The translations under genes and the position numbers were made by a program. Shown here piece by piece: positions 19,043 to 61,064 of a DNA stretch of 64,000 nucleotides. Below the pieces are notes generated by a model, which did no database searches, was not told the origin of the DNA, and saw nothing but the letters and a program-made list of their open reading frames with translations. Numbering within the stretch: position 1 is the first letter of the stretch; each line of letters opens with the position of its first letter. This DNA comes from Bacteroidaceae bacterium (lineage in GTDB: Bacteria > Bacteroidota > Bacteroidia > Bacteroidales > Bacteroidaceae), in the NCBI GenBank assembly GCA_017933995.1, contig JAGBKI010000056.1:27994-91993 (forward strand), given 5' to 3'.

Positions 19043-19126
19043 AAATTAAGCCTAAGTTTTTACAAATTAAGCCTAAGTTTGGCGAAATTAAGGCTTAGTT
19101 TCTACAAATTAAGCCTAAGTTTGGAG
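19043..19126. repeat. Array 1 of four 21-bp palindromic units
   Basis: Four units of exactly 21 bases follow each other. Each is a 17-base near-palindrome of the form AAAYTAAGSCTTARTTT plus a 4-base spacer (TTAC, GGCG, CTAC; final GGAG). The array lies between divergent genes. The rest of the 18868-19354 gap shows no gene. Sister arrays of the same length are at 31083, 49634 and 60981. Confidence 0.9.
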
Positions 19127-19354
19127 ATTTTCTTGGGTTCGGAAGCGATTCCTGCGGGTTTTCTTGGGAATTCGTGGGATTTTCCGGCATCGGGCTTGGC
19201 CGCGCTTTGTGTGGCAGGCGGGTAGGGTAGGGGCGTGGTGCTTACAGGAATGCTCAGGGTTTTGGTTGTCGAATGCATTTTTGGGACAGAAACGTGCGCT
19301 ATGTGGCGGGTTATGTGTACTTTCGCCCGGTGTAACTATATAGAGACCACAGTT

Positions 19355-20239
19355 ATGAAGAACATCACCATCCGTTCAGCACGTCTCGTTGCTGAAATCA
19401 GCCCCATCGGGGCCGAAATCCAAAGTCTGCGCACCGCCGAGGGGCGTGAGTACAACTGGCAGGGCACACCGCCCTATTGGCCCGGTCGCGGTCCTGTGCT
19501 TTTCCCCGCGACGGGGGCTCCGTGGGACGGCAAGTACTACATAAACGGCGTGGCATTCGCCATGCCCAAGCACGGCTTTGTCAAGGAAAAGGCGTTCGTG
19601 GCCGAGTGTGTGGCCGAAAACAAGGCTGTCTTCACATTCCGCCCCGACGACGAGTCGAAAGCCGCGTTTCCCTTCGACTTCGTGCTTTCCGTCACTTATA
19701 CGCTGGCCGACGACGCGCTGCGCGCCGACTTCCGTGTGGACAACCCCACCGCCGCTCCGCTCCATTTCCAGATAGGCGGTCACCCGGCGCTTGCCGTGCC
19801 GGGTTTCGACGCGCTGCGCACCGTGAACGGCTATGTGCGCTTGGAGGCATCCGACCCCGCCACACCGCTTTACTTAATACGCGCGCGCGAACAGGGCTGC
19901 ATCCAGCCGGGACGCTTCCCCGTGCCAGCCGACGGGGACGGCCTCGTGCCGCTCGCCGTGTCGACGTTTGCCAACGAGGCGTTGATTTTCGAGGCGGGCC
20001 AGGTGCGCGCCATCGAACTCCTTGACCTTGACAAACAGCTTGTGGCCCGTGTGGAGAGCGACGCACCTTGTTGGCTCGTGTGGCAGATGCAGGGCGTGAA
20101 CAGCCCCTTCGTGTGCTTCGAACCTTGGTACGGACTGCCCGACAACGAGGGCGAGCCGCGCGAACTGGCGCAGCGGCCCTATGCACAATGCGCCCCCGCT
20201 GGCGGCTCATGGCACGGCGGATTTACCATCCGCATTTAA
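19355..20239 (+). CDS. Aldose 1-epimerase family protein
   Basis: The protein (294 residues from the chosen ATG) belongs to the galactose-mutarotase-like beta-sandwich superfamily, closest to the LACX/YihR-type group. Landmarks are AEISPIGAEIQSLRTAEGREYNWQG, the conserved PKHGFVKEKAF and FQIGGHPALAVP, which hold His residues at the expected active-site positions, and the late CFEPWYGLPD. It would interconvert sugar anomers. The longer open frame upstream was rejected because the protein then starts with a non-family stretch. The gene is isolated, between array 1 and the ssrA repeat array. Confidence 0.85.
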   Translation: MKNITIRSARLVAEISPIGAEIQSLRTAEGREYNWQGTPPYWPGRGPVLFPATGAPWDGKYYINGVAFAMPKHGFVKEKAFVAECVAENKAVFTFRPDDESKAAFPFDFVLSVTYTLADDALRADFRVDNPTAAPLHFQIGGHPALAVPGFDALRTVNGYVRLEASDPATPLYLIRAREQGCIQPGRFPVPADGDGLVPLAVSTFANEALIFEAGQVRAIELLDLDKQLVARVESDAPCWLVWQMQGVNSPFVCFEPWYGLPDNEGEPRELAQRPYAQCAPAGGSWHGGFTIRI

Positions 20240-20301
20240 GAAAAATGGTGCAAGGCGGGTGCGTATGACTATAAAAACGTTGTTTTTCTTTCTTGTACAC
20301 T

Positions 20302-20664
20302 CGCCTTGCACTATCTTTGCTTCGCGAAGATAGGCTGCGGCTCGGCAGTGAAAACGAAAGAACTACGTTTTTTCCTTTTCACTACTCTCGCCTTGCACTA
20401 TCTTTGCTTGCGCTATGATAGGCTGCGGCTCGGCCTAAGTTGAAAAAAGCGTTGCTTTTTCCTCTTTAGGCTCTCGCCTTGCACTATCTTTGCTTCGCGA
20501 AGATAGGCTGCGGCTCGGCAGTGAAAACGAAAGAACTATGTTTTTTCCTTTTCACTACTCTCGCCTTGCACTATCTTTGCTTGCGCTATGATAGGCTGCG
20601 GCTCGGCCTAAATTGAAAAAAGCGTTGCTTTTTCCTCTTTAGGCTCTCGCCTTGCACTATCTTT
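20302..20664. repeat. Tandem 173-bp promoter-bearing repeat array upstream of ssrA
   Basis: A conserved core (CGCCTTGCACTATCTTTGC, then TTCGCGAAGATAGGCTGCGGCTCGGC) begins at 20302, 20389, 20475 and 20648. Half-units of 86-87 bases alternate between two variable hairpins (AGTGAAAA...TTTTCACT and GCCTAA...TTTAGGC). The two full 173-bp copies are almost identical. Each core carries TATCTTTG, a -7 promoter match, and the last core is the tmRNA promoter itself. The bases at 20240-20301 carry nothing else that I can name. Confidence 0.85.
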
Positions 20665-20665
20665 G
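20658..20665 (+). promoter_or_regulatory. -7 box (TATCTTTG) of ssrA
   Basis: TATCTTTG lies 11 bases before the mature 5' end of tmRNA and is the final copy of the element repeated in the upstream array. Confidence 0.65.
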
Positions 20666-20675
20666 CACCACTTTC

Positions 20676-21075
20676 GGGGCTGAACGGATTTGACAGCGGA
20701 AGAAAGGGTGTGGTAAGCACGCAGTGCGCCGTGGGTGGGCACTATAATCTCGGCCCTCGAAAATTAATTGGCGAAAACACTTACGCTCTCGCTGCTTGAA
20801 CTGAAGTACAGTAGGTTCGCTTAATCCTCGCTCCAGGAGCGGGGACGGGACATCGCCCGAAGTAGCCGTTTTTCCCGAGGCGACTTCAACGCGGCGGTGC
20901 AGCAAAATCGGGAATAGCCACGCGGGGCCTCGCCCGTAGGGTGAAAATTCAAGAGGATAAGGCGTTGGCGCGGTGGCTGCGGTCTTGCCGACGCACGAAA
21001 ACCCAAACGCAGCTAAGCGTGTAGAAAGCTCATCGGTTCTCCGTTTGGACGAGGGTTCAATCCCCTCCAGCTCCA
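20676..21075 (+). ncRNA. ssrA: Transfer-messenger RNA (tmRNA)
   Basis: tmRNA rescues stalled ribosomes and adds a degradation tag. The 5' end GGGGCTGAACGGATTTGACAG and the 3' end GAGGGTTCAATCCCCTCCAGCTCCA form the tRNA-like domain. Their acceptor strands pair (GGGGCTG with CAGCTCC), and the T-loop TTCAATC is present. The tag frame at 20770-20799 reads GENTYALAA followed by TGA, a typical Bacteroidales tag. The terminal CCA is not encoded: A21075 is followed by CTT. Length is about 400 nt. A strong terminator follows at 21106. Confidence 0.97.
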
Positions 21076-21105
21076 CTTTTTCCCCGTGTGGGGACTACAA
21101 AAGAC

Positions 21106-21172
21106 GACGGGTGACAAACTGTGTGGCCGCTTACGGAAGCGGGCCGAAACAACTTGTCACCCGTCTTTTTTT
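21106..21172 (+). terminator. Terminator of ssrA
   Basis: GACGGGTGACAA (21106-21117) pairs perfectly with TTGTCACCCGTC (21154-21165) and is followed by seven Ts. The remaining bases to the next gene at 21384 show nothing further. Confidence 0.85.
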
Positions 21173-21383
21173 GTGTCTGTTCGCCAAAACTTCTGACCCG
21201 ATAAACCGACGCTATGACGCTTTCTTGCGCAAGACGAATACGACTGAAAAAGTAATCCCCTCTTTGCACAAAACGCACGAGTTACCTGTCCTTACTGCAT
21301 ATTCCGAAGGAAACAGAAACTTTTAGCGGACACCAATATTTTTTTATCTGTCTGCCAAAATTGCTGGGGCGTTTCGGTTCCGC

Positions 21384-22823
21384 TCACCCCTTCCTGATGA
21401 ACTTCCACAGTTCGTTCACGATTTGCGCGCCCAGCAGGCGCAGCGTGCCGAAGTAGAGCGCGCAGACAGCTGTCACGCGCAGGCCCAGGCGCAGCCACAG
21501 TGAGGCGACACCCACCGTGGCGTAGCACACGCCCGCCACCAGTGCGGCGGCGAGCAGCAGGAAGGGCGCCACGTCGCGCAGCAGGTCGGCCAGTCGCAGA
21601 CCGATGAGGCGCCGCCCGGCGAAGTGCCACAGGAAGAACCACACCGCATTGAGCGTGGCGTAGACGGCCACCATCGTCTCCATACCCCAGTGCGCCGTGG
21701 CCAGCACGCTGCCAATCTGCACCGCGATGAGGCTCACGTTCATGCGCATAAACAGGCCGCTGCGCCCCGCCGCCACCGCCATTTGCTGGAATAGGAACTG
21801 CAGCGGTACGAACGCCCCGCCCACGCACAGCCACCGCAGCAGCGGCACGCAGGGCAGCCACTGCGGTCCGATGGTCACGAGGATGAACTCCTCGGCCACG
21901 CCCGCCAGCCCGAACATGGCCGGGAACGTGAGCAGCGACGTGAAGCGCAGCAGTTTGCGGAACGCCCGCAGCCGTCCGGCGTTGTCGTCGCGTATGATGG
22001 CCAGCACGGGCTGCGCCACGGGACTGAGCGTGTCGCGCACGACGCTCGTGGCCATCGTGTTCCACTTGTTGGCCTGCGTGAAGTGGCCCACAAGGTGCAT
22101 CTGCCCGGCAAACATCTTGCCGAAAACGAGGGAAAGGATGTTGCCCGACACGGCGTTGACCACCGACGTGACGAGCATCTTGCTGCCGAAGCCGAACATG
22201 CGGCGCACGGGGCGCAGGTCTATCCGCGCCATCGGCAGCCACGGCACGTAGAAGAAGCGGCCAAGGAAGAAGACGCTGACGTAGGTGAGCTGCTGCCACG
22301 CCAGGCTCCAGTAACTGTAGCCCGAATAGGCCAGCGTCACGCCCACCGCTCCGCTGCACAACAGCGCGGCCACGCCCAGCACGGCCTTTTCCTTGTTCAT
22401 CAGTTCGCGGAACATGTATGCCGAAAAGGGCGTACCCACGCCCGCCACAACGAACGAGACGAAAACAAGGCGCGACAGCGCGGTCAGTTCGGGCTTGCCG
22501 AAGAAGTCGGCCAGCAGGGGGGCGCAGGCAAAGAGCGCGGCATAGAGCGTCAGCCCCACGAACGTCGAGAACCAGAAGACGGAACTGTAGTCCTCGCGGC
22601 GCGCCGTCTTGAGGTTGGTCAGCGCGGCGATGAACCCGCTTTCCTGCAAGGCCACGGCCACGGCGTTGAACACCGTCAGCACACCCACCATCCCGTAGTC
22701 GCCCGGCGTGAGGCGGCGTGCCAGCACGATGCCGAACGCCAGGTTCAGCACCTGCGTTGCCACGCTGGCCAGCCCACTCCAGGCCAGGCTCCGCGCCGTC
22801 CGTTGTTTGAGGCTCTCTGCCAT
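21384..22823 (-). CDS. Lipopolysaccharide/polysaccharide flippase (Wzx-like)
   Basis: The 479-residue protein has about twelve to fourteen hydrophobic segments and begins with the amphipathic MAESLKQRTARSLAWSGLASVATQ, then LAFGIVLARRLTPGDYGMVG. The latter is the hallmark of the polysaccharide-export branch of the MOP superfamily. It would flip undecaprenyl-linked oligosaccharide across the inner membrane. Its promoter lies at the end of a three-copy repeat array: the -7 box TACCTTTG ends nine bases from the ATG, so the mRNA should have almost no leader. The scattered glycosyltransferases nearby are plausible partners. Confidence 0.9.
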   Translation of the reverse strand: MAESLKQRTARSLAWSGLASVATQVLNLAFGIVLARRLTPGDYGMVGVLTVFNAVAVALQESGFIAALTNLKTARREDYSSVFWFSTFVGLTLYAALFACAPLLADFFGKPELTALSRLVFVSFVVAGVGTPFSAYMFRELMNKEKAVLGVAALLCSGAVGVTLAYSGYSYWSLAWQQLTYVSVFFLGRFFYVPWLPMARIDLRPVRRMFGFGSKMLVTSVVNAVSGNILSLVFGKMFAGQMHLVGHFTQANKWNTMATSVVRDTLSPVAQPVLAIIRDDNAGRLRAFRKLLRFTSLLTFPAMFGLAGVAEEFILVTIGPQWLPCVPLLRWLCVGGAFVPLQFLFQQMAVAAGRSGLFMRMNVSLIAVQIGSVLATAHWGMETMVAVYATLNAVWFFLWHFAGRRLIGLRLADLLRDVAPFLLLAAALVAGVCYATVGVASLWLRLGLRVTAVCALYFGTLRLLGAQIVNELWKFIRKG

Positions 22824-22831
22824 TGCGGGGG

Positions 22832-22839
22832 CAAAGGTA
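22832..22839 (-). promoter_or_regulatory. -7 box (TACCTTTG) of the flippase gene
   Basis: The minus strand reads CGCCTTGCACTACCTTTGC, nearly the same as the ssrA promoter core. It lies at the gene-proximal end of the 22839-23089 array. Confidence 0.55.
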
Positions 22840-23089
22840 GTGCAAGGCGAGCGCAGCGGAAAGGAAAACCCCCGTTTTCCTTTCCAGCAGCCGAGCCGCC
22901 GCCTACCTTCGCGAAGCAGAGGAGTGCAAGGCGAGCGCAGCGGAAAGGACCCCCCGTTTTCCTTTCCAGCAGCCGAGCCGCCGCCTACCTTCGCGAAGCA
23001 AAGGAGTGCAAGGCGAGCGCAGCGGAAAGGAAAACCCCCGTTTTCCTTTCCAGCAGCCGAGCCGCCATCTACCTTCGCGAAGCAAAGGC
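22839..23089. repeat. Three-copy promoter-bearing repeat array upstream of wzx
   Basis: Units of 82-84 bases start at about 22839, 22923 and 23005. Each has TGCAAGGCGAGCGCAGC, a hairpin GGAAAGGAAAAC...GTTTTCCTTTCC, then AGCCGAGCCGCC and TACCTTCGCGAAGC. Reverse-complemented, the conserved parts match the cores of the ssrA array at 20302-20664, so both arrays belong to one family with exchangeable hairpins. Confidence 0.85.
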
Positions 23090-23149
23090 AGGAAAAACAG
23101 GCGCAGCCTTTGTCGCCAGCGCTCGTTTTTCCTATTTTTGCCCTGCAAA

Positions 23150-23439
23150 CAGCTTTGCCCGTCCTAAAGCAGGAACCGGCAAAGGCTGTAGGCCGAACAT
23201 ATTTATAAGGCGTTTACTACGACGCTTTGTCCCGTCCGCTTGAACTTCGCACCTTCAACTTCTGTCGGGGACAAGGCCACGGTGGATGCCCCTATACAGT
23301 ATAGCGTCTGACTCCAGCCTGCGACCAGCGCGGGGGAAAGTGCGTGGTATTGGCGTGGGTACATCGTTGTCCGTTCCGACAGAGAGGCTGTGCGAAGGCC
23401 TAAGCGGTGGAGCGGGAATGAAGCTCCCACGTCTTTTTT
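23150..23439 (+). ncRNA. Predicted structured RNA, copy A
   Basis: A -7 box TATTTTTG at 23133-23140 precedes, and a terminator hairpin (GTGGAGC pairing with GCTCCCAC) followed by six Ts closes the region. Internal stems include CAGCTTTGCC with GGCAAAGGCTG and TTGTCCCG with CGGGGACAA. Copy B at 25294 shares blocks such as GGCGTTTACTnCGACGCTTTG and GACAAGGCnACGGTnGATG, the same order of stems and the same terminator. No convincing reading frame exists. It could be an independent RNA or a leader of the GT90 gene that starts 73 bases later. Confidence 0.6.
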
Positions 23440-23512
23440 AGTGTTTTGGGGAGGCATCGCTCCCTTGTCTGTTTCCCTTGACGCTGTATCCACCGCAACC
23501 GAACTTCGCAAG

Positions 23513-24520
23513 ATGTCTGATTCTATCTTCTACAAAATCCGCTCAGGCAAGAACAGCAAGCTGCTGTATTTCACCCGAAACTATTTGAGGCAGTTGGTTC
23601 CCCGCCCGTTCTATACCCACAGGCTTCAGCAGGTGCTTCGCGCTGTAGAGGAGCGTCCCGACAAGGCGTACATCTATAGCCGTGCCAATTATTACTGCCG
23701 CCTTCCTATTGGCACGCCCCTGCCTCCTGAGGCGGACGGGATCGGGAAACTGAGGTTGGGAAGCCAGAAGGTTTATTACTTCGATGCGCAGGAAGTGTTG
23801 CGTTGGTTCCCGCCAGCGTTGCGCTGGGCCTATCTGCCCGGCGACGTGGACTTTATACCCGACAGCCCAGCCGTGAGCAAGTCGCGCCCCATTGCTTCCG
23901 ACGGACGGAACGCCAACGCCACAATCCTCAAACTGGACAAGGTGCGTCATTTCATCTTTCTCCGCGACGGCAAGGCGTTTTCCGAAAAGGCAGACAAGGC
24001 CGTTTTTCTTGGAAAAGTCAATGGCAAAGCGGCGCGCCAAGACTTCCTGCGCAAGTACTTCGGCCATCCGAGGGTCGTGGCGGGGTGTGTGGACAGCGAT
24101 CCCTCAATCCCGCCAGAATGGATGTGCCCCAAAATGACGCTGTACAGCCATTTCGACTACAAGTTCATACTTGCGCTTGAAGGCAACGACGTGGCCAGCA
24201 ATCTCAAGTGGGTGATGTGGTCGAACAGTCTGGCCGTAATGCCGCGTCCCACGTGTGAAACGTGGTTCATGGAGGGGCGGCTCATTCCTAACGTCCATTA
24301 CGTCGAAATCCGGCCCGACTTCAGCGACCTTGTGGAACGTATGGACTACTACACGTCCCATCCCGATGAGGCGCAGGCAATTATAAACAATGCGCATCGG
24401 TATTGTGCGCAATTTATGGACAAAAAGCGGGAAACGCTTATCGGCCTCCTGACGATGCAACGCTATTTTGCTGCTACAGGACAGCTTCCCGTCGAACCCT
24501 GGATGCTACAGCGCGTATAG
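23513..24520 (+). CDS. Family 90 glycosyltransferase (CAP10/LpsA-like)
   Basis: The 335-residue protein has the CAP10-type signature SHFDYKFILALEGNDVASN, then WVMWSNSLAVMPRP, ETWFMEGRLIPNVHYVEI and RMDYYTSHPDEAQAI. This matches GT90 enzymes that add xylose, glucose or other sugars to lipopolysaccharide or capsule. The first 40 codons of the longer open frame lie in the terminator region of the structured RNA, so I start at MSDSIFYK. No membrane segment is seen. The neighbouring flippase and truncated acyltransferase fit a surface-glycan role. Confidence 0.88.
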   Translation: MSDSIFYKIRSGKNSKLLYFTRNYLRQLVPRPFYTHRLQQVLRAVEERPDKAYIYSRANYYCRLPIGTPLPPEADGIGKLRLGSQKVYYFDAQEVLRWFPPALRWAYLPGDVDFIPDSPAVSKSRPIASDGRNANATILKLDKVRHFIFLRDGKAFSEKADKAVFLGKVNGKAARQDFLRKYFGHPRVVAGCVDSDPSIPPEWMCPKMTLYSHFDYKFILALEGNDVASNLKWVMWSNSLAVMPRPTCETWFMEGRLIPNVHYVEIRPDFSDLVERMDYYTSHPDEAQAIINNAHRYCAQFMDKKRETLIGLLTMQRYFAATGQLPVEPWMLQRV

Positions 24521-24676
24521 GCGTGAGGAGAGTGGAACGGCGTGTGGCGTGCGTGGGATTCTGGTCTTGCCTTCTGTCGGCTGCAAGATAGTCCCGGAAG
24601 CGGGGAAGCAAGCAGGTGAGCCTCCCTTCATTCGGAATAGGCGAGGCCGGAACGCCCCTTTCTATGTATAAAGTGC

Positions 24677-24684
24677 TATTTTTG
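24677..24684 (+). promoter_or_regulatory. -7 box (TATTTTTG) upstream of the acyltransferase fragment
   Basis: TATTTTTG matches TAnnTTTG about 98 bases before the ATG at 24782. The rest of the 24521-24781 gap shows no gene. Confidence 0.45.
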
Positions 24685-24781
24685 CACCGCCCGTCGGGCG
24701 AAACGGCCTGCACAAATAGGCGTTTATTAAAACGGCCTGAACTTCGCAGTGCTTTTCCGCCCACTCCGTATTATATATATT

Positions 24782-25237: not shown

Positions 25238-25293
25238 ATTTCTGCGCATTCCCTTTGCCGCCAGCAGGGAATGCGCTATTTTTGCAGCGTCTC

Positions 25294-25588: not shown

Positions 25589-25780
25589 TATTGAGACACA
25601 ACAAGTAATGTTCAACTTTTTAGCTCTATACGCCTATGCCACAAACCATTCCTCTTTAATTCCTTTCATAAGGATAGTTCCAAACTTTCTCCCTTTGGAG
25701 ACATAATTTCTCCTATTGTAGCGTGTTCTTCCTAATGCCACGATACACAAAATCTAACCAAACCCAAACCAAAACACACA

Positions 25781-27129: not shown

Positions 27130-27197
27130 TTGTAAGACGCGAAATAATGTGATCTGAAACACGATTACCAATCAGATAGGCAACACAAGAAACAATA

Positions 27198-29916: not shown

Positions 29917-30942
29917 ATGACAAAAGTTGCCATTAACGGCTTTGGCCGTATCGGTCGCCTCGCATTCCGCCAGATGTTCGAGGCAGAAGGCTACGAAGTA
30001 GTTGCCATCAACGACCTTACAAGCCCCAAGATGCTTGCCCACCTGCTCAAGTACGACACCGCCCAGGGCGGTTTCTGCGGCAAGTTCGGCGAAGGCAAGC
30101 ACACTGTGGAGGCCACGGAGAACTCCATCATCGTAGACGGCAAGGAAATCACCATCTACGCAAAGCCCAACGCAGCCGAGCTGCCTTGGGGCGAGCTGGG
30201 TGTGGACGTAGTGCTCGAGTGTACGGGCTTCTACACCTCTAAGGAGAAGGCCAGCGCCCATGTACAGGCCGGTGCCAAGAAGGTTGTCATCTCCGCTCCC
30301 GCCGGCAACGACCTCCCCACCATCGTCTTCAACGTGAACCACACGACGCTGACGCCCGCCGACACGGTCATCTCCGCCGCTTCCTGCACCACGAACTGCC
30401 TCGCCCCCATGACGAAGGCGCTGAACGACTTCGCTCCCATCCAGAGCGGTATCATGACGACGGTTCACGCCTACACGGGCGACCAGATGATCCTCGACGG
30501 TCCGCAGCGCAAGGGCGACGTTCAGCGTGCCCGTGCCGGCGCACAGAACATCGTGCCCAACAGCACGGGTGCAGCCAAGGCCATCGGCCTCGTCATCCCC
30601 GAACTGAACGGCAAGCTCATCGGTGCCGCCCAGCGCGTTCCGACGCCCACGGGTTCCACGACCATCCTGCACGCCGTTGTGAAGGGCGAAGTGACCGTTG
30701 AGGGCATCAACGCCGCCATGAAGGCCGCCCAGAACGAAAGCTTCGGCTACACGGAGGAGAAACTCGTCAGCAGCGACATCATCGGCATGAAGTTCGGCTC
30801 GCTCTTTGATGCCAACCAAACGATGGTCAGCAAGATTGGCGACGGCAACTCGCTTGTTCAGGTCGTTGCCTGGTACGACAACGAGAACAGCTACACCAGC
30901 CAGATGGTACGCACCATTAAGTACCTCGCCGAGCTGAAGTAA
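29917..30942 (+). CDS. gapA: Glyceraldehyde-3-phosphate dehydrogenase, type I
   Basis: This glycolytic enzyme oxidises glyceraldehyde 3-phosphate with NAD and phosphate. The 341 residues include the NAD-binding start [15 protein letters not shown], the active-site [14 protein letters not shown] with the catalytic Cys, the His region [13 protein letters not shown], and [15 protein letters not shown] at the C terminus. The gene stands alone with its own promoter and terminator. Codon use is strongly biased, as expected for a highly expressed gene. Confidence 0.98.
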
Positions 30943-31082: not shown

Positions 31083-31166
31083 AAATTAAGCCTATATTTC
31101 TACAAATTAAGCCTTGATTTGTACAAACTAAGCCTAAGTTTCTACAATTTAAGGCTTAATTTGCAG
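31083..31166. repeat. Array 2 of four 21-bp palindromic units
   Basis: Four consecutive 21-base units with spacers CTAC, GTAC, CTAC and final GCAG. The array is flanked by a nearly perfect inverted pair: CAACGGACTGATTTTGC before and GCAGAATTAGTCCGTTG after. It sits between gapA and acpP. The stretch 31190-31449 that follows shows no supportable gene. Confidence 0.9.
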
Positions 31167-31449
31167 AATTAGTCCGTTGAAAAAACTTTTTGCGTGGATT
31201 TGCTTGGCTTTTTGAGGGAACAAATGTGGGTACATTCCTAATGTGTCGCGCCGTAAGAGGATGCTAACGATGGCAAATAGGGAGCTGCTTTCGACGCTTT
31301 CGGCACGGGAAAAACGCGTTGCGAGGAGGAGGATGGTTGCGGCTGTAACAATATCCCGCGAAACGTGAAGAAACCCCGCTGTTATTGATGTCAGCGTGCA
31401 CAAACGGGCAGTGGAAAGAGCTGGTTTTCACATTTTTTTACTTACTGGC

Positions 31450-31581: not shown

Positions 31582-31824
31582 ATGGCAAACATTGACGTTG
31601 CTGCAAAAGTGAAAGAAATCATCAAGGACAAGCTCAGCGTGGAAGAGGCCGACATCAAGGACGAGGCCAGCTTCGCCAACGACCTCGGCGCCGACTCCCT
31701 CGACACCGTCGAACTGATTATGGAGTTCGAGAAAGAGTTTGAAATCACCATCCCCGACGAGCAGGCCGAGAAAATCAGCACGGTCGGCGAGGCCATTGCT
31801 TATATTGAGCAGAACGCTAAGTAA
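31582..31824 (+). CDS. acpP: Acyl carrier protein
   Basis: ACP carries growing fatty acyl chains on a 4'-phosphopantetheine arm. The 80-residue protein is acidic and has the attachment motif [12 protein letters not shown] with Ser39 as the modified residue. Helix II ([15 protein letters not shown]) and the ending are typical. fabF follows 216 bases downstream, the usual pairing in fatty-acid synthesis. The gene has its own promoter. Confidence 0.97.
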
Positions 31825-33319: not shown

Positions 33320-33455
33320 AAGTTTAATAAGGTTCACTATAAGGTTTAATCAGGTTTAAGAGGTTTAAGAAGTTTAATCCGTCCGGCACGATGAGCGCCC
33401 TCGTGGCGAAGCATTAAACCTCTTAAACCTCTTAAACTTCTTAAACCTTATAACG
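33320..33455. repeat. TTTAAGAGG-type hairpin tract between fabF and rnc
   Basis: GGTTTAAGAGGTTTAAG-like units on the left, CTTAAACCTCTTAAACC-like units on the right, and a GC-rich centre make a long hairpin. It is of the same type as 7198-7370. Confidence 0.7.
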
Positions 33456-37941: not shown

Positions 37942-38001
37942 CTTAAACCTCTTAAACCTTATTAAGCCCCTTAAACCTCATTAAACCTCATTAAACCTTT
38001 T
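37942..38001. repeat. CTTAAACC-type tract before the rhomboid gene
   Basis: Six or so CTTAAACC / ATTAAACC units in direct repeat; one-sided relative of 7198-7370 and 33320-33455. Confidence 0.6.
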
Positions 38002-47416: not shown

Positions 47417-49198
47417 TCACACATCCTGAAATTCCGGGTCGGATGCGGCCTGGGCCTTGCGCATCACGCGGAGGAAGTTTCCGCCCCACACCTTGGCGAG
47501 GTCGCTGGGCGTGAGGCCCTCGGCGAGGAGGCGTTTCGTCAGGTTGGGCAGTTCCGCCGCCGAGGCCAGGCCGGGCACGCCGCCGTCGCCGTCGAAGTCG
47601 GAGCCGACACCCACGTGGTCGATGCCCGCCACGTCAATCATGTGAAGCAGGTGGCGCACGGCGTCGTCGATGGTGGCGTCGTCGGGCCGCTCGTTGAGGA
47701 ACCCGGGATAGAACGTCACCTGCGCCACGCCGCCCACGCCCGCCAGCGCGGCCAGCTGCTCGTCGGTGAGGTTGCGCGGGTGGTTGCACAGGGCGCGGCT
47801 GCTGGCGTGCGAGCATACGGGAGGCACGTCGCTCACCTCAAGCGTGTCGAAGAAAGTCTGCTCGCCCGCGTGCGACAGGTCGACGAGCATACCCGTGCGG
47901 TTCATCTCGTAGACGGCCTCGCGCCCCAGGTCGCTCAGCCCGCCGTGTTCGTGAGCGGTACGCACCGCGCTGTCGCAGAGGTCGTTGTCGCCGTTGTGAC
48001 ACAGCGTCATATAGACCACGCCCATGCGGCGGAAGTGCTCCACGTTGGCGATGTCCGTGCCGATGGCGTAGCCGTTCTCGATGGCCATCATCAGCGAGCG
48101 CAGGCCGTCGCGCTTGTTGCGGTAGAGGTCGTCGGGGGTGAAGGCCAGTTCCACACCGTCGGTGGCCGAGGCCATGGCGCGTATCTGTTCGAGCAGGCGC
48201 TCGGCCTTGGCGGTGGCGACGAGGCGCTCCTCGGGCGACCGACCGCCCTGCGGCAGGTAGGCGGCCATGATGCCGCAGTCCAGCAGGCCGTCGGTCATCT
48301 TGTGGTGGTCGACCAGCACCTTCGCGTCGCGCACCTCGAACTGCACGCCCTGGTCGAAAAACATCGGCGTGTCCTCGTGGGAGTCGAGCACGACGACGTC
48401 GGGGCGCAGGTGGAAGTCGCGCGCGCTGCGGTGGAGCGCGGCCTGCCCCACGATATAGCGGAACAGCGGCATCATGGCCTCGTCGCCCGCCACGGCGAAG
48501 CACTCCGGGTGCCACTGCACGCCGAGGACGGGTTTGCACTCCGTGCTCTCCACGGCCTCGACGATGCCGTCGCCGCTGCGCGCCGTGACACGCAGGCGCG
48601 GACCGGGCTGGCCCACGGCCTGATGGTGGAATGAATTGACGGGGAAGCGCTCGCCCAGCAGTGAGGCCACGAGCGAGCCGGGTTCGGTCTCGACGAAGTG
48701 GGTGGCCTCGGCGCGCGGCGCGTTCTGGCTGTGTTTCAAGAGGTTGGCGTCGGGGTAGGCCGTGGCGATGTCCTGCAACACGGTGCCACCCAGGGCTACG
48801 GCCATCACCTGTATGCCCCGGCAGATGCCCAGGATGGGCAGGTTGCGGTCGAAAGCCAGCTGCACCAGCAGCAGTTCGCCCCGGTCGCGCTCGGGGTTAA
48901 TGGAACCGAGCGCCGGCACGGGGTCCTCGCCCGTCCAGAGGGGGTTGAGGTCGGCCCCGCCCGACAGCAGCAGGCCGTCGATGCGTCCCAGCAGCGACAG
49001 CAGCACGTCGGCGTCGGCGGTGGGCGGTATGGCCAGCGGCACGCCGCCCGCGCGCTCGATGCTCTTGTAGTATCCCTCGGCCAGTTCCGCGCCCGCCGGG
49101 CCGAAGTTGGCCGTGATGCCGATGACGGGGCGCGCGGCGGGCGTCACGGGCGCGCCTTGCAGGCGGTCGTAGTCCGCCTTGAAGTCGAATAGAGGCAT
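47417..49198 (-). CDS. Fusion of a class I glutamine amidotransferase (C26) and a membrane dipeptidase (M19)
   Basis: Residues 1-260 (from the chosen MPLFDFKADYD) are a gamma-glutamyl-GABA hydrolase-like GATase: LLLSGGADLNPLW, nucleophile GICRGIQVMAVALGG, and the His-Glu pair in VLGVQWHPE. Residues 270-590 are a renal-dipeptidase-type M19 metalloenzyme: LDSHEDTPMFF, LCHNGDND, VDLSHAGEQTF, CSHASSRALCNHPRNLTDEQL and VGVGSDFDGDGG. Both sets of catalytic residues look intact. The combination could deglutamylate a peptide and then cut the dipeptide, for instance in peptidoglycan or glutathione recycling (inference). There is no signal peptide. The start was moved eight codons in, to the ATG downstream of the promoter. 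Confidence 0.93.
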   Translation of the reverse strand: MPLFDFKADYDRLQGAPVTPAARPVIGITANFGPAGAELAEGYYKSIERAGGVPLAIPPTADADVLLSLLGRIDGLLLSGGADLNPLWTGEDPVPALGSINPERDRGELLLVQLAFDRNLPILGICRGIQVMAVALGGTVLQDIATAYPDANLLKHSQNAPRAEATHFVETEPGSLVASLLGERFPVNSFHHQAVGQPGPRLRVTARSGDGIVEAVESTECKPVLGVQWHPECFAVAGDEAMMPLFRYIVGQAALHRSARDFHLRPDVVVLDSHEDTPMFFDQGVQFEVRDAKVLVDHHKMTDGLLDCGIMAAYLPQGGRSPEERLVATAKAERLLEQIRAMASATDGVELAFTPDDLYRNKRDGLRSLMMAIENGYAIGTDIANVEHFRRMGVVYMTLCHNGDNDLCDSAVRTAHEHGGLSDLGREAVYEMNRTGMLVDLSHAGEQTFFDTLEVSDVPPVCSHASSRALCNHPRNLTDEQLAALAGVGGVAQVTFYPGFLNERPDDATIDDAVRHLLHMIDVAGIDHVGVGSDFDGDGGVPGLASAAELPNLTKRLLAEGLTPSDLAKVWGGNFLRVMRKAQAASDPEFQDV

Positions 49199-49219
49199 AG
49201 GTGTGGTTCCTTTTGCGAG

Positions 49220-49227
49220 CAAAAGTA
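49220..49227 (-). promoter_or_regulatory. -7 box (TACTTTTG) of the fusion gene
   Basis: The minus strand reads TACTTTTG 22 bases before the ATG, giving a very short leader. Confidence 0.5.
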
Positions 49228-49633: not shown

Positions 49634-49717
49634 AAACTTAGGCTTAATTTGGCGAAACTAAGCCTAAGTTTGGCGAAATTAAGCCTTAATTTGTACAAAC
49701 TAAGCCTAAGTTTGGAG
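49634..49717. repeat. Array 3 of four 21-bp palindromic units
   Basis: Four 21-base units with spacers GGCG, GGCG, GTAC and final GGAG. The array is flanked by GTGGCTTTACAATCTCT on the left and an inverted counterpart AGAATTGTAAGCCAGC on the right. It lies between the divergent dipeptidase fusion and murG genes. Confidence 0.9.
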
Positions 49718-53258: not shown

Positions 53259-53353
53259 AAGCACGCCGCGTGCCGGTTTGGTCTTACGTCCATATACGTC
53301 CGCCATCGGTAGCTCAACTTTTAGCTTTTACCTTTTATTTTTTCACTAAGACA

Positions 53354-54817: not shown

Positions 54818-54824
54818 AACCAAA

Positions 54825-54992
54825 GGGAGGCAAAGGGAGTTAGAAGGAGTTAAAGAGGAGTTAATGGCCGTATGTGACAGCACCTCCCTCTCCCCCATCA
54901 ACCCCTCTCTCCCCTCTTTCCTTTAATCCCCAGCACCACTAACGGCACTTTAACTCCCCCTTAACTCCCCTTTAACTCCCCCTTAACTCCCC
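54825..54992. repeat. TAACTCC-type hairpin tract between ftsA and ftsZ
   Basis: GGAGTTAAA-type units on the left and TTAACTCCCC-type units on the right form a potential long hairpin between two division genes. A short relative is at 47380-47410. Confidence 0.65.
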
Positions 54993-54998
54993 TTTATT

Positions 54999-56297: not shown

Positions 56298-56304
56298 TTA
56301 AATA

Positions 56305-57003
56305 ATGAAAAGGCTTACCATTGCCATCGACGGCCACAGTTCCTGCGGCAAGAGCACGATGGCCAAGGAACTGGCGCGCCGCCTGGGCTACGTCTACGTC
56401 GACACCGGCGCGATGTACCGCGCCGTGACGCTCTTCGCCATGCGGCGCGGGCTGTTCGACAGCGGCACGCTCGACGCCGCAGCCCTCGAAAGCCTGATGC
56501 CGCAGGTCAAAGTGGGCTTCCGCATCGACCCCGCCACGGGGCTGCCCCGCACCCTGCTCTGTGGCGTCGACGTGGAGCGCGAGATACGCGGCATGGACGT
56601 CTCCTCGCACGTCAGCGAAGTGGCCGCCCTGCCCTTTGTGCGCAGCGCCATGACACGCCAGCAGCAACTGATGGGGCAGGACGGCGGCGTGGTGATGGAC
56701 GGGCGCGACATCGGCACCGCAGTCTTCCCCGACGCCGAACTGAAAGTCTTTGTCACCGCCAGCGCCGAGGTGCGTGCCCAGCGCCGCTACGACGAACTGC
56801 GCGCCAAGGGCGAGGAGGCCGCCTACGACGACATCCTGCGCAACGTGCAGGAGCGCGACTACATCGACTCCCACCGCGCCGTCGCCCCCCTGCGCCAGGC
56901 CCCCGATGCACTCCTGATCGACAACAGCGCGCTCACCCGCGAACAGCAAAACCAATGGCTATGGAGCAAAGCCCAGGAGCGGCTGGCCTCGCCGTCGAAA
57001 TAG
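56305..57003 (+). CDS. cmk: Cytidylate kinase
   Basis: Cmk phosphorylates CMP and dCMP with ATP. The 232-residue protein has the P-loop [18 protein letters not shown], the CMP-binding [36 protein letters not shown] and [13 protein letters not shown]. All are as expected for the long bacterial form. Its 3' end overlaps the start of ispH by 49 bases in a different frame. Confidence 0.96.
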
Positions 57004-57848
57004 ACGCGGGCAGCGGTTTCTGCTTCGGCGTGACCACGGCCATCAGCAAGGCGGAGGAGGAACTCGCGCGCGGCGAACTCTTCTGCCTGGGCGACATCGT
57101 GCACAACAGCGGCGAGGTGGAGCGCCTGGGCCAGCGCGGCTTGCGCACCATCGGCCACCACGACCTCCCCACGCTGCGGCGCGGCACGCGCGTCTTGCTG
57201 CGCGCACACGGCGAGCCGCCCACCACTTATGAAACCGCCAGCCGGGGCGGGCTGGAAATCATCGACGCCACCTGTCCCGTCGTCCTGCAACTGCAGCGGC
57301 GCATACGCCGTGTCTACGAAGAGACGCCGCGTCCGCAAATCGTCATCTACGGCAAGCGCGGCCACGCTGAGGTGCTGGGGCTGGTGGGGCAGACCGACGG
57401 CGAGGCCGCCGTGGTCGAGACGCTCGACGAGGCCGCCGCCCTGCCCGTCGACACCGCCCGCCCGCTCGCCCTCTTCTCGCAGACCACCAAGTCGCTCGAC
57501 GGTTTCCACGCCGTCGAAGCGTGCCTCGCCGGACGTATGGACGCGCCGGGGCTGTTCCGCGCTTTCGACACCGTGTGCCGCCAGGTCTCCGGCCGCCAGC
57601 CGCGCATCGAGCAGTTCGCCGTGAAACACGACGTCATCCTTTTTGTTTGCGGAAAGAAAAGCAGCAACGGCCACGCCCTCTTCGCCGCCTGCCAGCGCCG
57701 CAACCCCCGCAGCCACATGGTAGACTCCCCCGCCGCCATCCGCCGCGAATGGTTCGACGGCGCCCGCACCGTTGGCATCTGCGGTGCCACCAGCACACCC
57801 AAATGGCTCATGGAAGCCTGCCGCGACGAAATCCTGCGCCACGTCTGA
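56955..57848 (+). CDS. ispH: 4-hydroxy-3-methylbut-2-enyl diphosphate reductase
   Basis: IspH makes the isoprenoid precursors IPP and DMAPP at the end of the non-mevalonate pathway using a 4Fe-4S cluster. The three cluster Cys residues are in FCFGV, DATCPVV and GICGATSTP. The substrate-binding HN in DIVHNSGEV, the His of RAHGEPP and the late STPKWLM are also present. The protein has 297 residues. The start could be this ATG or the ATG two codons later; either overlaps cmk extensively. Confidence 0.95.
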
Positions 57849-57920
57849 GCGCCACTTGCTTGCAGGCACAAAAAAATCCGCTCCTTTGGGGAAAAGGAAC
57901 GGAAAGGCTTTGGCCGTTTG

Positions 57921-57993
<73 letters not shown>

Positions 57994-58100
57994 AATTGGC
58001 TGTGGCTCTAAGCGGGTGCAAAGATGCGGCGACTTTTCGGATTGGCCAAACATTTCGCCCGTTTTTTTCGTTGAGCCACTGTTTTTTGCCCATCTTGCCG

Positions 58101-58108
58101 TATCTTTG
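58101..58108 (+). promoter_or_regulatory. -7 box (TATCTTTG) of the riboswitch transcript
   Basis: TATCTTTG matches TAnnTTTG just before the cobalamin riboswitch. Confidence 0.55.
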
Positions 58109-58119
58109 CACCTGCAAGC

Positions 58120-58345
58120 CGGTTCCACTCCCCCGTCTGCTTATCCGCACGGCGCGGAGAGTGGCTAAGAGGGAACGCCGTGTAAATCGGCGACAGTTCC
58201 CGCTGCTGTAAGCCCGCCTTTCAGCGCCCCTATGCTGCCCCGCTTTGCGGGAGCGATGTCACTGCCAGCCCTTGTCGGCAGCGGGAAGACTTATAGGAGG
58301 CGTGCGGGCAAAGTCAGAAGACCTGCCGACGTGTAGCGGACAGCC
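58120..58345 (+). promoter_or_regulatory. Cobalamin riboswitch
   Basis: The leader has the conserved features of cobalamin riboswitches: AAGAGGGAAC near 58170, TGTAAATCGGCGACAGTTCC followed by CGCTGCTGTAAG, GTCACTG near 58257, and the B12 box AGTCAGAAGACCTGCC at 58312-58327. It lies upstream of a surface-lipoprotein gene and would repress it when cobamide is plentiful. The expression platform is probably in the 58346-58548 stretch, where no gene is visible. Confidence 0.92.
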
Positions 58346-58548
58346 GCGCCCGGGAGATGGTGCGCTGTTTCTGCGAGCAGCATACACACCTATACATTCG
58401 CTTTCGCCTCGTTTGCAATCGCTTGCGGGGCTGCGGGAGCCGGACACGCGCCGGGCGCATCTGCTGTGCGCCGTCGCGCTGTGCCGATGTGGGAACTGCT
58501 GGCTTTGATAGCGCGAACATCTTTAACCTCATAAAAAACTTTTCTCAA

Positions 58549-59631
58549 ATGAAGAAGAATCTGAGAACACTCTTGCTGCTGGCCGCCGCGATATGGACGG
58601 TCAGTTCCTGCGACGACGACGACCCCAAAGTGCCCGCCTTCACCGACGAGCCGTGTGCCGTTGTCGTGAACCAAGGTGCCATGGGCTACTTGTCTGGTAC
58701 GCTTGATCTCCTCTCGCTGACCGATGGCACGTACACCACGGGCTACGCCGAACTCGGCGGAACGCCCGAAAACGTCGTGGAGTGCGGCGGCTACCTCTTT
58801 ATCCCCCTGAACGAAGAGAACAGCATTGCCGTCTACGACAAGAGTTCCCTCCTCCGCTCGGCCACCATCGCAGTGCCCGCTCCGCAGAGCATCTGCACCG
58901 ACGGCGCGCGCGTCTTCGCGGTGGGCAACGACAGCATATTCCGCATCAGTGCCACCACCCTGGCTGTCGAAGCCAAGGACACCGTGGGCCACACGGCTTT
59001 CGCCTGCACTTATACGGGCGGCAGCGTCTACGTGAACGTGGGGCGCACATACGGGCAGTACACCGGCGGCACCACTGTGGCCAAGGTCAACCCTGAAACG
59101 CTCGCCGTCCAGCAGATAGAGGTGGGCATCAACCCCTACAGCCAGATTGCGACCGACGGCAGCGGCAACGTCTACACCGTTTGCCAAGGCAATTACTACG
59201 ACGTGCTCCCCACCGTCTATCGCATCGCCTCCGACGGCACATCCACGCCCATCTGCAACGGCACGCTCATCGACTGCTACGGTGGCAAACTCTATGTGGC
59301 CTATCGCACCAGCAGTTACGACGAAGCCTGGAACGAAATCAGCACGACCACCTACAAGACCTACGCTCTTGGCAGCGCCACGCCCGTGGCCGAGGACTTC
59401 ATCAGCGCCGCTGCCGAGGCTCCCGCCGCCGCTACCTTCCTGCGCGTCAATCCCGAAAACGGCGAAGTCTTCATCGGCACCAACGGCGTGACGGACGGCG
59501 GCTTTGTGAGCTACCTCACGTCGGGCCACGTCTACCGCTATGCCCCCACTGGCGCGCTCCTTGCCAAATACGACGCAGGCGTAAGTCCTTATGCCATCGC
59601 CTTTGTCACCCGCCACCGTGTGGCGGAATAA
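58549..59631 (+). CDS. btuG: BtuG-like cobamide-binding beta-propeller lipoprotein
   Basis: The 360-residue protein has a lipoprotein signal (LLLAAAIWTVSSCDDDD, with an acidic stretch after the Cys that in Bacteroidetes directs surface export). It then has repeated propeller blades (SIAVYDKSSLLRSATI, GGTTVAKVNPETLAVQQIEVG, GSGNVYTVCQGNYYD, TFLRVNPENGEVFIGTNG). Control by a cobalamin riboswitch together with this fold fits BtuG, the surface protein that captures cobamides and hands them to BtuB. No btuB, btuF or other transport gene is adjacent. The name is by analogy; sequence alone does not prove ligand binding. Confidence 0.75.
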   Translation: MKKNLRTLLLLAAAIWTVSSCDDDDPKVPAFTDEPCAVVVNQGAMGYLSGTLDLLSLTDGTYTTGYAELGGTPENVVECGGYLFIPLNEENSIAVYDKSSLLRSATIAVPAPQSICTDGARVFAVGNDSIFRISATTLAVEAKDTVGHTAFACTYTGGSVYVNVGRTYGQYTGGTTVAKVNPETLAVQQIEVGINPYSQIATDGSGNVYTVCQGNYYDVLPTVYRIASDGTSTPICNGTLIDCYGGKLYVAYRTSSYDEAWNEISTTTYKTYALGSATPVAEDFISAAAEAPAAATFLRVNPENGEVFIGTNGVTDGGFVSYLTSGHVYRYAPTGALLAKYDAGVSPYAIAFVTRHRVAE

Positions 59632-59657
59632 ACCTCTGTTCCTCCCCTTGGGAAACC

Positions 59658-59706
59658 ACCCGGCTCTGTAGCGGACACGTTCCGCCCCGGAGCCGGGTTC
59701 TTTTTA
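59658..59706 (+). terminator. Terminator of the btuG-like gene
   Basis: ACCCGGCTC and GAGCCGGGT pair and are followed by five Ts. Confidence 0.8.
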
Positions 59707-59781
59707 CCCCACGAGCCTTGCGGCGGAAACGTTTTGGCAACACGGCGGCGCGCAAATGTAACCACATTGTAACGCCAGCAG

Positions 59782-59814
59782 TTTGGACGGAAGCGGCAGG
59801 CTGTTCTATCTTTG
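59782..59814 (+). promoter_or_regulatory. Promoter of the PepSY-like gene
   Basis: TTTG (59782-59785), 21 bases, then TATCTTTG (59807-59814): a full match to the Bacteroidetes promoter pattern, 56 bases before the ATG. Confidence 0.65.
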
Positions 59815-59870
59815 CACCGTCAAACCACGTTTTGGCAGAACTTGTATAACCTTTTAACAAAGCGGACTTT

Positions 59871-60317
59871 ATGAGATTGAAAAACATCCTCCCCGCAGCC
59901 CTGGTGGCCGTGGCCCTGCTCACATCCGTAGCAACCTCGTGCCGAGCCACCGCCACCGCGCCCGACTCCCTGCCCCAGGCGGCCCGGACGGTCATCAGCA
60001 AACACTTCAGCGGCAAGCAGGCCGTTTTTGTGAAGCAAGAAACCGAATGGACGCGCCGCTTCTACATCGTAGTCCTGGACGACGGCAGCAAGATAGAGTT
60101 CGACTCCCGAGGCGAGTGGACAGAAATCGACTGCGCCACGGGCAGCGTGCCCGACGCTCTTGTTCCGGCACCCATTCTGGCCTATGTGCGGAAACATTTC
60201 CCGCAGTGCGTCATCACCGAAATCGAGCGCGACGCGCGTGGCTACGAAGTAGACCTCTCCAACGGAGTAGACATTGACTTCGACCGCCATTTCCGCGTGC
60301 GCGAAATCGACCGTTAA
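59871..60317 (+). CDS. PepSY-like secreted protein, copy 1
   Basis: The 148-residue protein has a signal peptide with a possible lipobox (LTSVATSC) and two PepSY-like repeats. LPQAARTVISKHFSGKQAVFVKQE with FYIVVLDDGSKIEFDSRGEWTEID is the first; LVPAPILAYVRKHFPQCVITEIERD with YEVDLSNGVDIDFDRHFRVREID is the second. This is the Bacteroidetes PepSY-like (DUF2874) pattern. The function is unknown; periplasmic binding or inhibition has been suggested for PepSY domains. The related next gene is 41 bases downstream. Confidence 0.82.
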   Translation: MRLKNILPAALVAVALLTSVATSCRATATAPDSLPQAARTVISKHFSGKQAVFVKQETEWTRRFYIVVLDDGSKIEFDSRGEWTEIDCATGSVPDALVPAPILAYVRKHFPQCVITEIERDARGYEVDLSNGVDIDFDRHFRVREIDR

Positions 60318-60358
60318 GCACCCCCGATCCCCTATTCACACTGAAACCAAACAAGCAG

Positions 60359-60802
60359 ATGAAAAACCGACTCCTCTTGCTGACGCTCCTGATGGGGCTC
60401 AGCGCAATCTCGTTCACCGCTTGCAGCGACGATGACGACGACGTGAAAACCTCCGACGTGCCCCAGGCCGTCATGACAGCCTTCCAGGCCAAATTCCCCG
60501 CCGCTGCCGCCAAGTGGGAGCGCGAAGGCGGACTGCTCAAGGCCGAGTTTATCAACGCCGGCAGGGAAACCGACGCTTTCTTCACCACCGACGGCACGTG
60601 GGTGCGCACCGAAACCGATCTTTTCCCCACAGACCTCCCGGAGACCGTGCGCACCTATCTCGCTGCGAACTATCCCGACTGGGCCATCGACGATGCCGAC
60701 CTCATCGAAACGCCCGAAAGCACGTGGTATCGCGTGGAACTCGACAAACCAGGGTTCCCCGACGTACACCTGCGCTTCGCGTCCGACGGCACACGGCTGT
60801 AA
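60359..60802 (+). CDS. PepSY-like lipoprotein, copy 2
   Basis: The 147-residue protein has a lipoprotein signal (SAISFTACSDDDDD, an acidic surface-export-like motif). It has two PepSY-like repeats: VPQAVMTAFQAKFPAAAAKWERE with FFTTDGTWVRTETDL, and LPETVRTYLAANYPDWAIDDADL with WYRVELDKPGFPDVHLRFASDG. It pairs with the preceding gene as an operon and ends before a hairpin terminator. Confidence 0.84.
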   Translation: MKNRLLLLTLLMGLSAISFTACSDDDDDVKTSDVPQAVMTAFQAKFPAAAAKWEREGGLLKAEFINAGRETDAFFTTDGTWVRTETDLFPTDLPETVRTYLAANYPDWAIDDADLIETPESTWYRVELDKPGFPDVHLRFASDGTRL

Positions 60803-60848
60803 CCGCGCGGGCCACGTCCCCGTGCGCCCCGCCCCGCAACACCATCGC

Positions 60849-60881
60849 GGAGGCGTTTCCCCCAACAAGGGAAGCGCCTCC
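60849..60881 (+). terminator. Hairpin after the PepSY-like pair
   Basis: GGAGGCGTTTCCC pairs with GGGAAGCGCCTCC. The T-run that follows is interrupted, so efficiency is uncertain. Confidence 0.6.
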
Positions 60882-60980
60882 GTGTTCGTTTTCCGCCGTT
60901 TCCGCACAAAATAAGAGGCAGAACCGCCCGAAAAACCGCCCGCTGGCTCATAATTCCCGCGCCATCCCACACAAATCTCC

Positions 60981-61064
60981 AAACTAAGCCTTAATTTGTA
61001 GAAACTAAGCCTAAGTTTGTACAAATTAAGCCTTGATTTCTACAATTTAAGCCTAAGTTTGCAG
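60981..61064. repeat. Array 4 of four 21-bp palindromic units
   Basis: Four 21-base units with spacers GTAG, GTAC, CTAC and final GCAG. CACAAATCTCC precedes and AATTGCGCGG follows. It sits 100 bases beyond the PepSY-like terminator. Confidence 0.9.

What the first reader, a model, noticed from the sequence alone, without database searches (positions are those of the whole stretch)
19043..61064. Four dispersed arrays, each exactly four 21-bp palindromic units
Arrays at 19043-19126, 31083-31166, 49634-49717 and 60981-61064 are all 84 bp, made of four units of 21 bases. Each unit is a 17-base near-palindrome (AAAYTAAGSCTTARTTT) with a 4-base spacer taken from a small set (GTAC, GTAG, CTAC, TTAC, GGCG) and a closing GGAG or GCAG. 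Unit sequences differ between arrays while unit number, length and symmetry stay fixed, and all four lie between genes 11-19 kb apart. 21 bp is two helical turns, so a dimeric protein could bind all four sites on one face. This looks like a chromosomal protein-binding site (nucleoid, segregation or insulation) or a very regular repeat family, not CRISPR.
Basis: seen in the sequence. Interest (0 to 1): 0.82.

Follow-up and report, generated by a model that had tools for sequence, protein, structure and literature searches.

The report
Four-site arrays for HU-winged-helix proteins
The four short arrays are scattered docking sites, each with exactly four evenly phased seats, most probably for a histone-like (HU) protein fused to a DNA-reading domain; related gut bacteria keep the same four-seat layout but spell it with different DNA letters.

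Summary
In detail: four arrays of exactly four 17-bp palindromes on a 21-bp period. They belong to a genome-wide set (324 units): of 33 multi-unit loci in 801 kb, 31 have exactly four units. They are intergenic, more evenly spaced than chance, little or no more alike than shuffled arrays, and without hairpin covariation. A same-genus genome keeps the architecture with an unrelated palindrome (326 units). The gene family beside arrays in three species is HU-HIG: HU domain plus probable winged helix. Searched by protein, such genes often carry a private four-unit array just upstream: 10 of 16 new testable genes in the genus, 15 of 24 in other genera; controls 2 of 435 and 2 of 596. Operator similarity follows winged-helix similarity. 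Best reading: each array binds four HU-winged-helix dimers; one paralog's operator has spread to about 90 chromosomal sites, with A/T phasing reaching about 230 bp outward. Binding and nucleoid function are inferred. Seven searches of a partial library found no description.

The parts
19043..19126 (.). Array 1: four units of 17-bp palindrome plus 4-bp spacer; between divergent genes 18584-18853 (-) and 19355-20239 (+)
31083..31166 (.). Array 2: four units; between co-directional genes 29917-30942 (GAPDH domains) and 31582-31824
49634..49717 (.). Array 3: four units; between divergent genes 47417-49198 (-) and the murG-like gene, whose start is probably about 49947
60981..61064 (.). Array 4: four units; between co-directional genes 60359-60802 and 61485-62162
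19009..19042 (.). Left flank of array 1, an example of the conserved outer flank (read outward: GSAG-AATTA...AAAA-TTTTT type)
   Evidence: consensus over 62 half-flanks
31167..31200 (.). Right flank of array 2 (AATTAGTCCGTTGAAAAAACTTTTTGCG), a good match to the outward flank consensus

Best explanation
Each array is the binding site of an HU-family protein with a C-terminal winged helix (HU-HIG, 208 aa, own gene at G000:C7:29330-29956, outside the window). One dimer reads one 17-bp palindrome through its two winged helices; four dimers sit two helical turns apart on one face and the HU domains bend the DNA, giving a complex of four dimers on 84 bp whose curvature continues into the phased flanks. 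The array 77 bp upstream of the gene is its autoregulatory operator. Other HU-winged-helix paralogs have private operators with other palindromes. In this genome the operator of one paralog exists in about 90 further copies, evenly spread and without promoter preference, which are most likely architectural (nucleoid-organising) sites. Shown: architecture, gene association, motif/protein correlation, spacing, phasing. Inferred: binding, stoichiometry, bending, autoregulation, nucleoid role.
For: The gene family beside arrays in G000, G159 and G103 is HU-HIG (PF18291 E 2.7e-21, 6e-19, 1.9e-18). Its C-terminus resembles regulator domains weakly (profile positions 140-194 to chain 2ia2, a putative transcriptional regulator, E 0.004; DIP2311-like_C E 6.4e-5, under its cut-off). 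Upstream arrays (score >=22): 10 of 24 long HU-HIG genes, 0 of 31 shorter ones, 2 of 596 own genes with known arrays masked (9 of 596 unmasked), 2 of 435 genes of relatives; loci found by protein: 10 of 16 and 15 of 24. Four units: in 34 operators slots 1-4 are alike (mean 13.6-14.7 of 17), slots -1 and 5 are not (7.4, 6.5). Operator half-site similarity correlates with winged-helix identity after removing HU identity (partial r 0.19, P 0.008; the reverse r 0.10, P 0.07; n 26). Even spacing: 19 gaps, CV 0.44 against 0.79, P 0.0024. Phase-locked A/T periodicity to about 230 bp in G000 and G103. Gene-orientation classes beside arrays match chance, and promoter-type boxes show no excess.
Against: No binding data. 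24 of 58 long HU genes lack an array at the threshold; one HU gene without the C-terminal domain has one (G103_C6_354k); two shorter HU genes have arrays just downstream. 6 of 34 operators have a similar extra slot before the first unit, 1 of 34 after the last, and 4 of 34 fall short at each outer slot. G103 spacing is not even (CV 0.77). Three of the 10 genes were found through their arrays. Array positions are only weakly conserved between species. In G169 a second dispersed motif has no assigned protein.
Confidence: 0.74

Rival explanations
1. The arrays are targets of the same HU-winged-helix protein, but as a classical regulon: it represses or activates about 90 operons.
For: A TAnnTTTG box follows the array in 17 of 34 operators of HU genes; 9 of 30 dispersed arrays are in divergent regions. 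Within 120 nt, promoter-type boxes are as frequent beside dispersed arrays as elsewhere (8 of 62 ends against 28 of 202).
Against: Gene-orientation classes match chance (divergent 9 vs 6.8, convergent 4 vs 3.4, tandem 17 vs 19.8); within 60 nt boxes are fewer beside arrays (1 of 62 against 15 of 202); positions are poorly conserved between species; even spacing.
Confidence: 0.19
2. A replication, segregation or terminus system: the arrays are distributed centromere-like or macrodomain sites.
For: Evenly dispersed in G000, locally dense in G103 C5 159-338 kb.
Against: Not tested against origin and terminus; no segregation gene was looked for; many HU-winged-helix paralogs have a private array at their own gene, which looks regulatory.
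Confidence: 0.12
3. An ordinary mobile or decaying repeat family (REP/BIME, MITE) that happens to be palindromic.
For: About 90 copies, intergenic, species-specific, positions differ between species. In G103 the most similar pair of arrays slightly exceeds all 50 shuffles.
Against: In G000 and G159 arrays are no more alike than column-shuffled arrays; unit number nearly fixed; spacing over-dispersed; the same architecture is tied to one protein family across genera. RAYT transposase presence was not searched.
Confidence: 0.04
4. The arrays bind some other protein and the HU gene association is incidental.
For: No direct binding evidence.
Against: Association holds in gene sets collected by protein and operator similarity follows winged-helix similarity.
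Confidence: 0.06

Closest known systems
HU-HIG family (PF18291; TIGR01201 HU_rel) of the HU/IHF superfamily
   Same: The candidate protein is a member by profile. Burroughs et al. 2017 described new HU/IHF clades; only its reference entry was seen, the paper is not held.
   Different: I found no binding site, operator or four-unit array described for this family in the searches made.
Lrp/AsnC-type octamers (for example CopR, FL11)
   Same: Works like: a tetramer of dimers with winged HTH domains on semi-palindromic sites, about 150 bp of DNA wrapped (passages of PMC7830388).
   Different: Not a member: HU domain and no Lrp domain in the Pfam scan; four-unit 21-bp DNA code; about 90 dispersed copies.
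Site-specific nucleoid proteins (MatP-matS, SlmA, Noc; recalled, not looked up)
   Same: One protein, many dispersed palindromic chromosomal sites.
   Different: As recalled, those sites are mostly single and conserved in sequence; here sites come in fours and the sequence changes between species of one genus.
REP/BIME and REPIN repeats (recalled)
   Same: Intergenic, species-specific palindromes in about a hundred copies.
   Different: Little or no copying signal, no half-site covariation, fixed period and unit number, operator position at a DNA-binding protein gene.

Membership tests
HU-HIG (PF18291) protein family | HU domain above the curated cut-off | tested here: met
   76.3, 68.8 and 67.1 bits against cut-off 26.2. 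The model also rings over cut-off in 9 of 14 control genomes such as E. coli, so it does not exclude ordinary HU by itself; TIGR01201 HU_rel matches 13 of 13 aligned members
HU-HIG (PF18291) protein family | C-terminal winged helix | tested here: met
   Extra C-terminal domain in 18 of 24 long members by eye. The assignment rests on individually weak matches: chain 2ia2 E 0.004, DIP2311-like_C E 6.4e-5 under cut-off, UlaR HTH in 1 of 13. No structure was predicted
Lrp/AsnC octamer | Lrp/AsnC domain | tested here: not met
   No such domain in the Pfam scan up to E 1
Lrp/AsnC octamer | Four dimers on phased sites | not testable with these tools
   Four phased sites are shown; stoichiometry needs experiment
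REP/BIME/REPIN | Stem-forming palindromes (compensating changes) | tested here: not met
   Pairing of variable positions 6-12 is below independence: 0.49 vs 0.60, 0.25 vs 0.44, 0.22 vs 0.44; position 4-14 in G000 is slightly above (0.54 vs 0.49)
REP/BIME/REPIN | Copies related by recent copying | tested here: inconclusive
   Top pair of 88: G000 83 vs shuffled maxima mean 79.4, max 84; G159 76 vs 75.8, 80; G103 78 vs 74.7, 77: no signal in two genomes, slight in one
REP/BIME/REPIN | RAYT (Y1) transposase in genome | not tested
CRISPR | Repeats with unique spacers of repeat-like length | tested here: not met
   Spacers are 4 bp from a small set
MatP-matS-like macrodomain system | Positional confinement around terminus or origin | not tested
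   Draft contigs, no origin or terminus placed; spacing even in G000, uneven in G103 C5

The most novel reading that the evidence does not exclude
A sequence-programmed, nucleosome-like system in this bacterial family: HU-winged-helix proteins assemble as four dimers on a fixed 4 x 21 bp code that nucleates about 540 bp of helically phased, curved DNA, at about 90 evenly spaced chromosomal positions. The code word is private to each paralog and has been replaced wholesale between species of one genus while the four-site geometry stayed fixed across genera.
Probability: 0.42. Interest if true: 0.96.

Novelty: new variant of a known kind. Interest (0 to 1): 0.9.

Why it matters
HU is a near-universal bacterial chromosome protein that binds DNA without sequence specificity (abstract of PMC5683647 as shown in the listing). 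A family of HU proteins with its own readable address, repeated along the chromosome, would let one ask directly how nucleoid structures are positioned, why four dimers, and how a protein with about 90 sites (some 700 half-sites) can change its recognition sequence between species of one genus. Many species supply a natural protein-site pair, so recognition rules could be learned from sequence alone.

Tried and rejected
Hairpin or RNA element: rejected by half-site statistics; Rfam at gathering thresholds finds no family at the arrays. REP/MITE: see rivals. Conserved array position between species: weak. Of immediate neighbour genes with an ortholog in my own-genome stretches, 3 of 10 (G159; one at 515 bp) and 2 of 10 (G103) lie within about 500 bp of an own array, background 9.4% (my tally from its listing). 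Cyanobacterial 21-bp repeats found by the pattern scan have variable copy number; the pattern itself selects for period and core, so I draw nothing from them. Viral contigs: 19 pattern hits, which by eye are other repeats; no HU-winged-helix relative (close relatives only). A profile search of viral contigs was not possible because the alignment is too divergent. No structure was predicted: by its stated rule the tool takes window proteins and loci of certain other tools, and the HU gene is in neither, so I did not send it. Literature: searches found no description (listings only); the library is partial and the key 2017 paper is not held.

Weak points of my statistics: the array score is my own (pairs matched in four phased 17-mers, threshold 22 of 32); the gene caller is home-made; control windows (250 nt) are shorter than the HU windows (about 330 nt or more); the same-locus control has only 5 genes (0 hits); winged helices were assigned by eye from C-termini; half-flank periodicity P values are fractions of 500 random rolls; only loci returned by the searches (about 30 each), further stretches fetched and genes lying in other stretches were tested, not every match. 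The pattern used for the C3 word does not match its own locus closely and says nothing.
Full report
Observation. The four arrays are as described. Besides the 4-bp spacers, the outer edges tend to mirror each other (CTSC-like before, GSAG after), so the element is roughly symmetric as a whole.

Genome scale. The window is contig 52, bases 27994-91993, of a 2.48-Mb draft genome (G000). The 17-bp profile occurs 324 times with at most one mismatch, 0 times in the reversed control. An end-specific pattern lists 37 loci with both ends, and all 37 are exactly 80 bp apart (100 of 163 matches are listed, reversed control 23 and 24). In 801 kb fetched, 33 loci of two or more units hold 31 four-unit arrays, one two-unit array with array-like flanks, and one four-slot array whose first two units belong to a second motif. 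None of 80 arrays in three genomes lies inside a called gene. The genome total is an estimate: about 86 from units (324 in all; 121 in the 843 kb) and about 102 from loci per base; I write about 90.

Not obviously a repeat, not a hairpin. Arrays in a genome are about as similar as column-shuffled arrays (top pair of 88 positions: G000 83 against shuffled maxima of 79.4 mean and 84 max; G159 76 against 75.8 and 80; G103 78 against 74.7 and 77, a slight excess). Paired positions show no positive Watson-Crick covariation beyond 0.54 vs 0.49 at one position, and the variable pair 6-12 is anti-correlated in all three genomes, which gives units an orientation. The orientation tends to be shared within an array, clearly in G103, weakly in G000, where units 1 and 4 lean the other way.

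Spacing and context. The 19 within-stretch gaps between four-unit arrays run from 9.6 to 41.4 kb, CV 0.44, against 0.79 when arrays are placed at random in intergenic regions (P 0.0024); no gap is below 7.5 kb where 4.8 are expected (P 0.003). A 7.9-kb gap in contig 6 falls between two stretches and was not counted, and the two-unit and mixed loci were left out. Orientation of neighbouring genes is as expected from intergenic length. Promoter-type TAnnTTTG boxes (motif recalled) are fewer beside arrays within 60 nt (1 of 62 against 15 of 202) but equally frequent within 120 nt (8 of 62 against 28 of 202).

Flanks. Going outward, G000 arrays share GCAGAATTA..CGGC...AGAAA.TTTTT and G159 arrays ATAGAAT.CATCCGA.GC...AAAAT; G103 shows little beyond AATAA. 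A/T content is periodic at about 10.5-11 bp in phase with the array out to about 230 bp in G000 and G103 (windows 168-231: P 0.010 and 0.000 of 500 rolls; one inner window of G103, 84-147, P 0.09), to roughly 147 bp in G159 (P 0.04-0.05), and not beyond 231 bp in any; unanchored intergenic midpoints show nothing (P 0.36, 0.17).

Other species. The pair pattern is absent from 36 same-genus and 24 same-order genomes. A second carrier of the same motif, Bacteroidaceae bacterium RGIG5034 (G159; 180 units with up to 3 mismatches against 23 in the control), came from the scan of named genomes; G172, same genus and not, is probably the same organism. All 21 G159 arrays examined have four units. A motif-free scan of 400 kb from five same-genus genomes found that G103 has arrays of the same geometry with the palindrome GTTTGSYVSBRSCAAAC: 326 units, 25 of 26 arrays with four units and one with six; of 58 genus genomes only G103 has this motif in number (245 exact; G175 and G178 one each). 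G169 has three four-unit 21-bp arrays in 40 kb, with other palindromes, and G015 two weaker three-unit ones. The same scan found nothing convincing in G004 (120 kb), G075 (80 kb) or G124 (40 kb).

The protein. Comparing genes beside arrays across the three species gave one family present in all: G000 C7:29330-29956, its G159 counterpart (53% identity) and G103 C5:189 kb (45% over 60 aa). All are HU-HIG proteins with a C-terminal domain that is probably a winged helix. All 16 genomes searched match the HU-HIG model, 3 to 30 times each; ordinary HU is included, since E. coli and other controls ring too. Testing upstream regions for any four-unit array: 10 of 24 long HU-HIG genes, 0 of 31 shorter ones, 2 of 596 (9 unmasked) and 2 of 435 control genes (three of the 10 were found through arrays). 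Among the long ones 9 of 18 with the C-terminal domain and 1 of 6 without have it. Sets collected by protein search: in the genus, of 17 new genes of this kind among the returned loci 16 are testable, 10 with score 22 or more, 13 with 20 or more, and G023, G168, G179 without; 0 of 8 HU-only genes reach 22, two reach 20. In other genera 15 of 24 testable genes reach 22 and 18 reach 20. Pooled, 34 of 58. In these 34 operators slots 1-4 are alike and slots -1 and 5 are not on average; 6 of 34 have a similar slot -1, and 4 of 34 fall short at each outer slot.

Each paralog has its own word. In 843 kb of G000 the word of the C27 operator (AAACCAAACTTTGGTTT) occurs at its own gene and one further place, and two other HU-linked words (C23, C57; arrays downstream of the gene) only at their own gene at one mismatch, whereas the C7 word has 121 units. 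Operators of similar winged helices are similar, also after removing HU similarity (partial r 0.19, P 0.008; reverse 0.10, P 0.07). In sampled stretches of seven other-genus genomes (391 kb), dispersed 4 x 21 arrays away from the sampled HU gene occur in G067 (three, with a word different from the operator I had), G112, G129 and G118 (one each, near-cognate word), not in G082, G219 or, beyond its operators, G111; the same scan also lists other tandem repeats and chance-like hits.

Interpretation and limits. Shown: a nearly fixed four-site DNA architecture, its tie to HU-winged-helix genes, and the species-specific words. Inferred: binding by four dimers, bending or wrapping, autoregulation, and a nucleoid-organising role of the dispersed copies. 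Even spacing is seen in G000 only. How about 90 sites change word between species without visible copying is unexplained.

Noticed in passing
L069, L098, L118, L131 (named genomes) and G161, G162, G163, G165: Rumen Bacteroidales genomes carry 16 to 43 CGTATYAGSCTRATACG palindromes each, often 21 bp apart but with irregular unit numbers; the same word also stands beside the HU-winged-helix operator of G165.
   Followed up: partly
G000:C53:461-545: A four-slot array in which the first two units follow the word of the second HU paralog (C27) and the third follows the C7 word: possibly a mixed-paralog site.
   Followed up: partly
L301:17474 and L357:8464 (G169): A second dispersed word (TTTACCTCWGAGGTAAA) in a genome whose other word is AAACCAAGSTTTGGTTT; its protein was not identified.
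   Followed up: no
L327:1917, L347:3438 (G000): Two shorter HU-HIG genes have a four-unit array (21 and 23 bp period) just downstream instead of upstream.
   Followed up: no
G103, whole genome: 30 matches to the HU-HIG model in one genome (ordinary HU included), about ten of them in 140-aa frames with similar scores: an unusual expansion.
   Followed up: no
window 7197-7365, 33322-33448, 37943-37999, 54832-54996: Short 9-11-bp repeats (AGGTTTAAG/CTTAAACCT, AAAGAGGAGTT type) at several places of the window, some as paired inverted clusters.
   Followed up: no
window 20300-20666 and 22831-23088: Two long tandem arrays (about 87 and 82 bp units) near the tmRNA gene at 20676-21078.
   Followed up: no
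window 47417-49222: One open frame joins a C26 glutamine-amidotransferase-like domain and an M19 dipeptidase domain.
   Followed up: no
L053, L054, L060, L072, L081, L087 and other Nostoc and Fischerella relatives: Cyanobacterial 21-bp tandem repeats, some with a palindromic TTAAGCCTTAA core, in variable copy number.
   Followed up: no
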